Of a stretch of DNA of 64,000 nt, positions 15,134 to 25,457 are shown piece by piece (position 1 is the stretch's first letter; each line of letters starts with the position of its first letter). The translations under genes and the position numbers were made by a program. The notes beneath the pieces were generated by a model. The model ran no database searches and had not been told where the DNA came from. It was given only the letters and a program-made list of their open reading frames with translations. Origin of the DNA: Chloroflexota bacterium (GTDB lineage Bacteria > Chloroflexota > Dehalococcoidia > Tepidiformales > Tepidiformaceae); NCBI GenBank assembly GCA_026702615.1, contig JAPPBY010000014.1, forward strand, positions 1 to 64,000, read 5' to 3'.

Positions 15134-15499
15134 GGGGACGAAAGGTATCGACAGGAGGGAACGTAACCGGGTAGCAGGCCGAGGTTGGTCGTCACCCTCG
15201 TTAATCAGGCGGCCATTTGAGTAAGCGCCGAAGATCGCGAACTCGCTCTCGCGGCATAGCCCGTGAGACGTCTCATCGATAGCCCCTTCCCCGACGGAGC
15301 ACGGTGAGGCGCCATAAAAGTTGGGGCGCTGTGAGCTGACGCCGATACCGCTCACCTAAGATTCATCGGCTGGTTCCACCGTATTCGCCCCCCACCTGCG
15401 AAGCGATGGAATGAGACCCGAACTGGTGGGAAAGCCTGTAGGACAATCCGGAGCAGACCCTGGCTGGACCGGGAGTTCGATTCTCCCGCGTCTCCACCA
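15134..15499 (+). ncRNA. ssrA: tmRNA
   Basis: Transfer-messenger RNA of about 366 nt with encoded CCA. The 5' GGGGACG pairs with the 3' CGTCTCC to form the tRNA-like acceptor stem, and the 3' end carries GTTCGATTCTCCCGCG-type T-arm sequence. The 5' part shows the typical AAAGGTATCGACAGGAGG. The resume codon is read as GCC at 15227, preceded by TAAGC. The tag reads AEDRELALAA and ends at TAG 15257-15259. The ALAA end is the expected ClpXP degron. The gene directly follows smpB. Confidence 0.95.
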
Positions 15500-23314: not shown

Positions 23315-23382
23315 CAGGACAACACCACATCGGGAGGTGAATCGCACACCTGACCCAATCGACCACAGGTGGGATCGGTCAA

Positions 23383-23550
23383 GCGCCAGGTCCGCGCACC
23401 ACGCGGATGACGAGGCGGAGGCAGAATCGAACCATTCGGCGGGTGGCCTCCCGGCGGCACGGTCGTAAGGCTGGAAACAAACCACGGCGGGTAACCGCCT
23501 GACAAAACCCCGGCCACGTGCAGGGGGCTCGCGGCCCTCTCCCCCACCAG
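23383..23550 (+). ncRNA. glmS self-cleaving ribozyme/riboswitch
   Basis: Conserved glmS-ribozyme blocks occur in order upstream of glmS: AAGCGCCAG (23381-23389), P1 TCCGCG/CGCGGA (23391-23396 with 23402-23407), TGACGAGG (23408-23415), P2 GGAGGC/GCCTCC (23417-23422 with 23446-23451), AATCGA (23425), TTCGGCGG (23435) and CCCGGC (23451). A GTAA-tetraloop hairpin GGCGG/CCGCC (23486-23499) and a CCCC/GGGG stem follow. Cleavage is expected between A23382 and G23383, using glucosamine-6-phosphate as cofactor and lowering glmS mRNA. The 3' limit is approximate. This explains the long leader without a gene (23269-23606). Confidence 0.92.
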
Positions 23551-23606
23551 GCACCGAGCATCGACCGGGGGCGCGCTCGTCCCCACGACTGCCACGGGGA
23601 AGCTGT

Positions 23607-25457
23607 ATGTGCGGGATCATCGCCTACACCGGCTCGCGTCAGGCCGCGCCCATCTTGCTGGACGGCCTGCGTGACCTCGAATACCGCGGCTACGACTCGG
23701 CCGGCGTCGCCCTCCTCCCGGAGTCCGGCGGCGAGCCTGCCGTCGCCAAGCGTCGCGGCAAGATCGCCGAGCTTGACGCCGCCATCGGCGCGGAGCCGCT
23801 GCCGCCCGCTCGTACCGGCATCGGCCACACCCGCTGGGCCACGCACGGCGCCCCCAGCGACGCCAACGCGCATCCTCACACCGGCTCCGGGAACGACGTC
23901 GTCGTCGTCCATAACGGCATCGTCGAGAACTACGCCGCCCTCCGCGCCGAGCTCAGTGAGCGCGGCCATGTATTCGAGAGCGAGACCGACACCGAGACCA
24001 TCGCCCACCTGCTCGAAGAGGCCTTGGACGGCGGGAGCGACCTCCTCGCCGCCATGCGCGAGACCTGCGCCCGCCTTGCCGGTTCCCAGGCGATCGTCGC
24101 CCTGACCTCACGGGAGCCCGGGGTAGCCGTCGGCGCGCGCATCGGACATGCGGGCGCCGTCGTCGTCGGCTACGGCGAGGGCGAGATGTTCCTCTCCAGC
24201 GACCTTGCCGCCCTCCTCCCCCACACCCGCGACGTCGCCTTCCTCGCCGACCGTCAGCTCGTCCGTATCGACGAGCGTGGCGCCACTTACGCGACCCTCG
24301 ACGGCGCCACCGCCGAGGTCGAGCCCCGCACCGTCTCCCTCGACCCCGCCAGCGCCGCCCGCGGCTCCTACGAGACCTACATGCTCAAGGAGATCATGGA
24401 GCAGCCCGCCGCCCTCGCGGACACCATCGGCGGCCTCATGACGGTCGAGCCCGCCCGCCTCACCCTCGACGACCTCGGCGAGGCCCGCCCCTGGCTGGAG
24501 CGGGTCGAGCGCGTCCTCCTCGTGGGGATGGGCACGAGCCTGCACGCCGCCATGGTCGGACGCTGGTACTTCGAGCAGATCGCCCGCCTTCCTGCGGACA
24601 TCGACAACGCCAGCGAGTTCCGCTACCGCGAGCCGGTCCTCGGACCGGAGACACTTGTCGTTTCGGTTAGCCAGTCCGGTGAGACCGTGGACGTGCTGGA
24701 AGCGATGAATGTCGCGCGGGCCTCCGGCGCCCCCCAGATCACCATCTGCAATACCCCTGGCAGCCAGACCACCCGCGTCGCCGACGGCGCCGTCCACACG
24801 TACGCCGGCCTCGAACGCGGCGTCGCCAGCTCGAAGACGTTCACGACCTCGATCGCGGCCCTCTTCGCCCTCGCCCTCGAAACCGCCCGCGTCCGCGGCC
24901 GCATCAGCGACGACGACCTCGCCCGCCACGTGCGGGACCTCGCCGCCATGCCCGAGGTCGTCGGCCGCCAGCTCGAGTCGTTCGACGCCATCGCGAAAGC
25001 CGCCGACCGCTTCCGCACCACCGAGCACATCCTCTTCCTCGGCCGCGGCCCTGCCCTGCCCATCGCCCTTGAGGGCGCCCTCAAGATGAAGGAGCTCTCC
25101 TACGTCCACGCCGAGGGTTACGCCGCCGGGGAGATGAAGCACGGCCCCATCGCCCTCATCGACACCGAGTTCCCCACGGTCGCCCTTGCCGGACAGCACG
25201 CATTGCGCAGCAAGATCGTCTCGAACATCGAGCAGATCCGCGCCCGCGACGGCGAGGTGCTGGCCATTGTCACCGAGGGCGACGACGAGCTCATCGCCCT
25301 CGCCAACGAGGCGCTCACCGTGCCTCCGGTGCCCGCCCTGCTCGAACCGCTGGCCGCGATCGTGCCCCTCCAGGTGCTGGCCTACGCCACCGCCAATGCC
25401 CGCGGCTGCGACATCGACCAGCCCCGCAACCTCGCCAAGACCGTCACCGTGGAGTAG
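23607..25457 (+). CDS. glmS: Glutamine--fructose-6-phosphate aminotransferase (isomerizing)
   Basis: First enzyme of UDP-GlcNAc synthesis, making glucosamine-6-phosphate. The catalytic N-terminal Cys follows the initiator Met (MCGIIAYTG), followed by the class II amidotransferase domain (YRGYDSAGVAL, GHTRWATHG). Two SIS domains follow (LLVGMGTSLHAAMVGRWYFE; LFLGRGPALPIALEGALKMKELSYVHAEGYAAGEMKHGPIAL). It ends in NLAKTVTVE, the usual C-terminus. It is 616 residues, family-typical. Its product is the cofactor that should trigger the ribozyme in its own leader. Confidence 0.97.
   Translation: MCGIIAYTGSRQAAPILLDGLRDLEYRGYDSAGVALLPESGGEPAVAKRRGKIAELDAAIGAEPLPPARTGIGHTRWATHGAPSDANAHPHTGSGNDVVVVHNGIVENYAALRAELSERGHVFESETDTETIAHLLEEALDGGSDLLAAMRETCARLAGSQAIVALTSREPGVAVGARIGHAGAVVVGYGEGEMFLSSDLAALLPHTRDVAFLADRQLVRIDERGATYATLDGATAEVEPRTVSLDPASAARGSYETYMLKEIMEQPAALADTIGGLMTVEPARLTLDDLGEARPWLERVERVLLVGMGTSLHAAMVGRWYFEQIARLPADIDNASEFRYREPVLGPETLVVSVSQSGETVDVLEAMNVARASGAPQITICNTPGSQTTRVADGAVHTYAGLERGVASSKTFTTSIAALFALALETARVRGRISDDDLARHVRDLAAMPEVVGRQLESFDAIAKAADRFRTTEHILFLGRGPALPIALEGALKMKELSYVHAEGYAAGEMKHGPIALIDTEFPTVALAGQHALRSKIVSNIEQIRARDGEVLAIVTEGDDELIALANEALTVPPVPALLEPLAAIVPLQVLAYATANARGCDIDQPRNLAKTVTVE

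What the first reader, a model, noticed from the sequence alone, without database searches (positions are those of the whole stretch)
23381..23550. glmS ribozyme in a Chloroflexota-like, high-GC genome
Seen: all core blocks in order, P1 and P2 pair perfectly, a GTAA tetraloop hairpin and a downstream C/G stem follow, and glmS begins 57 nt later. Known: this ribozyme is best documented in Firmicutes. If taxonomy is right it widens or confirms the range; the core is very conserved while P1 and the 3' stems are GC-adapted.
Basis: partly seen in the sequence, partly recalled or inferred. Interest (0 to 1): 0.68.

Follow-up and report, generated by a model that had tools for sequence, protein, structure and literature searches.

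The report
glmS ribozyme in a Chloroflexota genome
The window holds a textbook self-cutting RNA switch in front of the gene that makes the sugar it senses; the surprise is in related bacteria, where variants of the same switch sit in front of nitrogen-assimilation genes.

Summary
Confirmed. Window 23371-23525 (+) matches Rfam RF00234 over its full length at 64.0 bits (cut-off 37), 81 nt before glmS (23607-25457). The double-pseudoknot core is complete; predicted cleavage is A23382|G23383. It is the only copy in this genome.

The phylum is Chloroflexota, the class Dehalococcoidia by inference. The element is common there: 32 of 36 genomes of the window's family and 125 of 400 sampled genomes of the phylum. 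The window element is an ordinary new member.

The novel part lies in relatives. In Anaerolineae, ribozymes with an altered P2.2 helix (GCG[G/A]CTG) precede nitrogen genes. In one family 26 of 59 hits precede glnA and 32 glmS; all 26 glnA copies and none of the 32 glmS copies have the altered helix. Of 80 named pattern hits, 43 precede glnA, 18 an ada/EamA operon (13 with glnA visible), 7 glutamate synthase, none glmS. All 48 aligned cores keep the core helices. The shifted bulge resembles a rearrangement inferred from mutants (PMC7125110). I found no report of this, but McCown 2011 is not held.

The parts
23371..23525 (+). glmS ribozyme, full-length RF00234 match
   Evidence: 64.0 bits, gathering score 37; only hit in the genome
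23382..23383 (+). predicted self-cleavage site, A(-1)|G(1)
   Evidence: position in AAGCGCC aligned to the Rfam consensus; site itself known from Bacillus work (recalled)
23384..23389 (+). P2.2 5' strand C2 G3 C4 C5, bulged A6, G7; pairs with 23437-23441
   Evidence: 30 of 30 family members pair; numbering from PMC7125110
23390..23408 (+). P1 hairpin (23390-23396 with 23402-23408)
   Evidence: 4 of 7 pairs changed on both sides in the family, 97.6% of cells paired
23411..23429 (+). P2.1 pseudoknot helix: 23411-23413 (CGA) with 23427-23429 (UCG)
   Evidence: invariant in 30 of 30
23417..23451 (+). P2: 23417-23422 with 23446-23451
   Evidence: 100% of cells paired, 2 of 6 pairs changed on both sides
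23469..23515 (+). P4: outer stem 23469-23474/23510-23515; inner hairpin 23486-23499 with GUAA loop
   Evidence: 76.7-78% of cells paired, several double changes; inner hairpin folds alone at -9.3 kcal/mol
23522..23540 (+). small hairpin after the ribozyme, outside the Rfam model
   Evidence: predicted fold; similar in 9 of 9 same-genus leaders aligned, with both strands changed in L026
23607..25457 (+). glmS, glutamine--fructose-6-phosphate aminotransferase, 616 aa
   Evidence: ORF; SIS, GATase_6 and GATase_7

Best explanation
The element is a glmS ribozyme in the 5' leader of glmS. When glucosamine-6-phosphate (GlcN6P) accumulates, it binds the preformed core and takes part in cleavage at A23382|G23383. 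The downstream glmS mRNA then carries a 5'-OH and is degraded from that end, most likely by RNase J, which lowers GlmS. Shown here: sequence, structure by covariation, position, conservation, and an RNase J-type gene in the genome. Inferred from Bacillus work: ligand, cleavage and decay.
For: RF00234 at 64.0 bits. Complete core with covariation in 30 family members. Hits in 32 of 36 genomes of the family, own included. GlmS encoded next to 72 of the 73 loci delivered; the other one, L029, ends 129 nt behind the ribozyme. RNase J-type protein of family TIGR00649, 585 bits. B. subtilis RNase J1 degrades glmS mRNA after self-cleavage (PMC3997798, passages).
Against: No biochemical data. One extra base lies between P2.1 and P2.2 compared with the Rfam consensus. 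P4 pairs are kept in only 76.7-78% of cells. TIGR00649 also matched many control genomes without the ribozyme, so RNase J is not specific support.
Confidence: 0.95

Rival explanations
1. A relic: the ribozyme sequence is kept by descent but no longer cleaves, or cleaves without regulation by GlcN6P.
For: No activity was tested. P4 is less well kept than the core.
Against: P2.2 and P2.1 are invariant while P1 and P2 covary, which points to selection on the folded core.
Confidence: 0.04
2. A chance or artefactual match (mis-binned contig, chance similarity).
For: The genome is a draft in 38 contigs.
Against: Full-length match far above the cut-off; present before glmS in all 7 same-genus genomes whose loci were delivered and in one more from that call (one search lists 8 of 8 same-genus genomes with a hit; loci checked).
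Confidence: 0.01
3. About the relatives, not the window: the glnA and glutamate-synthase copies in Anaerolineae sense something other than GlcN6P.
For: P2.2 type and target gene separate completely in one family: 26 of 26 glnA copies altered, 0 of 32 glmS copies. The targets are nitrogen-assimilation genes.
Against: P2.1, C2-G56, G3-C55 and G57, which PMC7125110 ties to catalysis or the cofactor pocket (G57's role recalled), are unchanged in 48 of 48 cores. Other non-glmS targets look amino-sugar related, which fits GlcN6P.
Confidence: 0.15

Closest known systems
glmS ribozyme of Bacillus subtilis / Thermoanaerobacter tengcongensis (RF00234)
   Same: Full-length model match, double pseudoknot core, bulged nucleotide 6, P4 domain, place before glmS.
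   Different: G+C-rich P1 and P4, one extra base between P2.1 and P2.2, host phylum Chloroflexota. No mechanistic difference seen in the window.
Deinococcus-Thermus variants of the glmS ribozyme with extra stems in the core (McCown 2011, recalled, not read)
   Same: The Anaerolineae copies also carry two extra hairpins inside the core, between P2 and P2.1.
   Different: The window's ribozyme has no such hairpins (3-nt linker 23423-23425). The Anaerolineae copies add a shifted P2.2 bulge and glnA or glutamate synthase as targets. I could not compare sequences with the published variants.
Glutamine riboswitches (glnA and downstream-peptide motifs; recalled)
   Same: RNA leaders of nitrogen-assimilation genes, like the Anaerolineae glnA leaders.
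   Different: The Anaerolineae leaders match RF00234; no glutamine riboswitch match was listed for the 8 + 9 loci scanned.

Membership tests
glmS ribozyme (RF00234), window element | covariance-model score above the curated cut-off | tested here: met
   64.0 against 37 bits, positions 1-167
glmS ribozyme (RF00234), window element | P1, P2, P2.1, P2.2 double-pseudoknot core with bulged nucleotide 6 | tested here: met
   100% of cells paired in P2, P2.1, P2.2; 97.6% in P1, 30 family members
glmS ribozyme (RF00234), window element | P3/P4 peripheral domain | tested here: met
   model aligns through P4; P4 stems kept in 76.7-78% of cells; P3 not counted separately
glmS ribozyme (RF00234), window element | located in the leader of glmS | tested here: met
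   glmS ATG 81 nt downstream, same strand
glmS ribozyme (RF00234), window element | GlcN6P-dependent self-cleavage at A(-1)|G(1) | not testable with these tools
   sequence of the site is present; activity needs the bench
glmS ribozyme (RF00234), Anaerolineae glnA-type copies | score above the curated cut-off | tested here: inconclusive
   16 of 26 glnA copies score below 37 bits, 10 above, though all are full-length or nearly so and E <= 0.001
glmS ribozyme (RF00234), Anaerolineae glnA-type copies | core helices P2.2, P2.1 and P2 | tested here: met
   48 of 48 aligned cores pair in all three, P2.2 with the bulge at position 4 instead of 6; the 5' strand was part of the selection regex
glmS ribozyme (RF00234), Anaerolineae glnA-type copies | GlcN6P-dependent self-cleavage | not testable with these tools
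   inferred from conserved core only

The most novel reading that the evidence does not exclude
In Anaerolineae the glmS-class ribozymes have become a small regulon. A distinct subclass with a re-registered P2.2 (bulge at position 4, C5-G54, U6-A53) puts the central nitrogen-assimilation enzymes under self-cleavage control: glutamine synthetase, an ada/EamA/glnA operon and a glutamate synthase operon. GlcN6P, made with the amide nitrogen of glutamine, would be the signal; in the boldest form the subclass has acquired another amine effector. Further copies precede a DegT aminotransferase/Gfo-Idh pair and a CofD-phosphoglucomutase fusion. This concerns relatives of the window's organism; the window's own ribozyme is canonical.
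Probability: 0.75. Interest if true: 0.78.

Novelty: new member of a known kind. Interest (0 to 1): 0.58.

Why it matters
For the window alone: it places a glmS ribozyme in what is very probably Dehalococcoidia and shows that the element is widespread in Chloroflexota.

The relatives matter more. [quoted passage not shown] If the Anaerolineae copies cleave, the class also governs glutamine synthetase and glutamate synthase. They would be natural examples of the shifted P2.2 bulge that PMC7125110 inferred from mutant rescue. Cultured strains carry them (Levilinea saccharolytica, Bellilinea caldifistulae, Pelolinea submarina; Longilinea arvoryzae as G676), so the idea can be tested directly. In one family 16 of 26 such copies score below Rfam's cut-off, which could explain why they have gone unnoticed.

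Tried and rejected
Considered and rejected: a chance hit (single hit in the genome, conserved before glmS); a second ribozyme in the window's genome (none with RF00234, and none with model R1; R1 did not find the known glmS copy either, so it is insensitive to the window's type); terminator control (terminator-like sites lie only on the minus strand); a stable leader fold that hides the ribosome-binding site (fold no better than shuffles).

Led nowhere: McCown 2011 and 2012 are not held (one search was a wrong id). Ten paper searches combined the glmS ribozyme with Chloroflexi, phylogenetic distribution, Chloroflexota, glnA, glutamine synthetase, P2.2, glutamate synthase, Anaerolinea, Deinococcus and 'expanded collection'. 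No listed title or abstract start reports the glnA association. I read passages of PMC3766115, PMC2258182, PMC7125110, PMC9495176, PMC3997798, PMC6154101, PMC10043782 and PMC10594590, section 14 of PMC7125110, and the abstract and introduction of PMC11602151, no whole text. All ten searches are used. The class Dehalococcoidia is inferred from 5 of 5 small-genome classmates with 19-30 reductive dehalogenase matches each, not from a named record.

Against the novel reading: 16 of 26 glnA copies score below Rfam's cut-off. P2.2 in that type never varies, so its pairing rests on complementarity and on comparison between types, not on covariation within the type. A script misread two of 26 glnA copies and missed one; I read these three, where they are GCG[G/A]CTG. 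Alignment A1 used 48 of 65 cores of at most 124 nt, out of 89 distinct cores found with a regex that itself demands AGCG[G/A]CTG but allowed A or G at position 53, so one strand of P2.2 is there by selection. The scan of named records demanded AGCGGCTG, so the absence of glmS among its 80 hits says only that this core type avoids glmS. One glnA copy (G655) has G instead of A before the cleavage site. L335 was not matched by RF00234 at E 0.05 and rests on model R1.

Full report
Observation. The Rfam glmS model matches window 23371-23525 on the plus strand over all 167 model positions at 64.0 bits, against a gathering score of 37. glmS follows at 23607-25457, with SIS and glutamine amidotransferase domains.

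Structure test. I aligned the 30 members of the window's family whose loci were delivered and counted a canonical structure with both pseudoknots. 91.9% of cells pair, against 86.2% in shuffles (0 of 500 as high); 56 cells have changes on both sides, against 20.3 (0 of 500). P2.2 with its bulged nucleotide 6 and P2.1 pair in 30 of 30; P1 and P2 covary; P4 is the weakest part (76.7-78%). Helix numbering is from PMC7125110 (passages; section 14), which reports that mutations in C2-G56 and in P2.1 are badly tolerated even when pairing is restored.

Host and distribution. The genome is 2.87 Mb in 38 contigs with one hit. Of the 36 genomes labelled f1, own included, 32 have a hit; the four misses are 78-86% complete. 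In the class 37 of 294 genomes have a hit, in the phylum 125 of 400, 111 of them over the cut-off, with 28 family labels among the positives by my count. The phylum is Chloroflexota: handles called 'same phylum' have contigs with the exact lengths of named records, for example G676:C1 (4,145,241) and Longilinea arvoryzae NZ_DF967972.1, or G667:C12 (243,190) and Levilinea saccharolytica NZ_LGCM01000039.1 (lineage). Five of five small-genome classmates tested carry 19-30 reductive dehalogenase matches each, so the class is very probably Dehalococcoidia. GlmS is encoded next to 72 of the 73 loci delivered; the other, L029, ends 129 nt behind the ribozyme.

Mechanism. As in Bacillus, GlcN6P would bind the folded core, the leader would cut itself, and RNase J would degrade the 5'-OH mRNA (PMC3997798 passages). 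The genome has an RNase J-type protein. Ligand, cleavage and decay are inferred.

Away from the window. Five genomes of one family carried two hits. I fetched 59 hits of that family (f119, which holds Longilinea and Levilinea, hence Anaerolineaceae) with their surroundings and found the next gene by tblastn: 26 precede glnA (53-172 nt from the model's end to the GlnA match, 26 different genomes), 32 precede glmS, and one neither (L167, Longilinea, 26.1 bits). In G578 the order is ribozyme, glnA, ribozyme, glmS within 4.1 kb (L082). Gene identities are from Pfam.

Two types of core. The 32 glmS copies have C at position 4: ten GCGCC[T/A]G with G53 and twenty-two GCGCA[T/A]G with A53. The 26 glnA copies read GCG[G/A]CTG, 23 with G and 3 with A, and have A53 (three of them read by eye). 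The glnA form can pair C2-G56, G3-C55, C5-G54, U6-A53 and G7-C52, which bulges position 4. PMC7125110 found that A6C rescues C4A about 24-fold and proposed such a bulge at position 4. If the pairing is right, this is a natural case of that arrangement.

Named records. By first recognised gene downstream: 43 glnA; 18 an ada-like gene or an EamA transporter, 13 of them with glnA visible behind; 7 a glutamate synthase operon (Glu_synthase-type proteins, and in some a GATase/GXGXG protein); 12 none. Of these 12, seven have under 400 nt of downstream DNA, four are titled as other phyla and lack the second core block (taken as chance), and one is the Longilinea third copy. None precedes glmS. Cultured carriers are Levilinea saccharolytica (L245), Bellilinea caldifistulae (L242), Pelolinea submarina (L237) and Longilinea arvoryzae (L154, L215).

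Conservation of the second type. 48 of these cores were aligned. With the shifted P2.2, P2.1, P2, P1 and two extra hairpins, 98.6% of cells pair (87.3% in shuffles), 174 cells are changed on both sides (43.0 in shuffles, 0 of 500 as high), and sliding the partner by one to three columns drops pairing to 39-46%. RNAalifold agrees on P1, P2 and the extra hairpins, but, not allowing pseudoknots, pairs the P2.2 and P2.1 strands otherwise or leaves them open. A model built from this alignment matched 149 of 249 Anaerolineae genomes, before both kinds of gene. Of the 30 loci delivered there, nine have GCGGCTG and precede glnA (3) or ada (6); 20 precede glmS, and one (L318) neither. Of 80 more hits fetched from that list, 70 precede glmS, and the three with GCG[G/A]CTG precede ada.

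Other targets. Single cases outside that subclass precede glutamate synthase (L335), a DegT aminotransferase followed by a Gfo/Idh/MocA dehydrogenase (L378, L383, L407), a CofD domain fused to a phosphoglucomutase (L395) and an FAD-linked oxidase (L318) (the L383 and L407 proteins were recognised by likeness to L378, not scanned). Rfam scores are 62.2, 55.7, 53.6, 47.6 and 37.7 bits for L395, L383, L378, L318 and L407. L335 does not appear in that call at E 0.05, so its ribozyme rests on model R1.

Novelty. I recall McCown 2011 as saying that all but two of 463 glmS ribozymes lie in glmS mRNAs, but could not read it. The ten paper searches listed under Tried and rejected showed no report of glnA or glutamate synthase control. 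The window's ribozyme is an ordinary member in an under-described phylum. The Anaerolineae subclass looks like a new variant of a known kind and deserves the bench test; it is what carries the interest score.

Noticed in passing
L074:2830-3047, L082:395-602, L154:1992-2209, L245:193-414, L237:6572-6782 and others: glmS-class ribozymes with an altered P2.2 before glnA in Anaerolineaceae (26 of 59 hits).
   Followed up: yes
L186, L191, L214, L221, L234, L236, L261: The same core type before glutamate synthase operons.
   Followed up: partly
L190, L193, L199, L253, L307-L312 and others: The same core type before an AraC-HTH/methylguanine-methyltransferase gene, an EamA transporter and glnA. Why an ada-like gene sits there is unexplained.
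   Followed up: partly
L378, L383, L407; L395; L318: glmS-class ribozymes before a DegT aminotransferase/Gfo-Idh pair, a CofD-phosphoglucomutase fusion, and an FAD-linked oxidase that lies behind a tRNA.
   Followed up: partly
L167:1987-2201 (G676, Longilinea arvoryzae): A third copy of the glnA-type core lies behind a plus-strand ORF and faces a minus-strand ABC-type ORF, with no plus-strand gene recognised downstream.
   Followed up: no
L157 (G655, glnA leader): The base before the predicted cleavage site is G instead of A.
   Followed up: no
window 23522-23606: Between ribozyme and glmS, same-genus leaders keep a small hairpin (both strands changed in L026) and a CCCCACCA stretch that could pair with the GGGGAA before the start codon. 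Pairing with the ribosome-binding site was not shown.
   Followed up: partly
window 15134-15499: Rfam finds a tmRNA at 118.5 bits that ARAGORN does not report.
   Followed up: no
L253:4286-4463: A 6S RNA match (56 bits) ends about 120 nt before the ribozyme of the ada/EamA/glnA operon.
   Followed up: no
L082:5155-5373: A T-box leader match of 68.8 bits, below its gathering score of 93.
   Followed up: no
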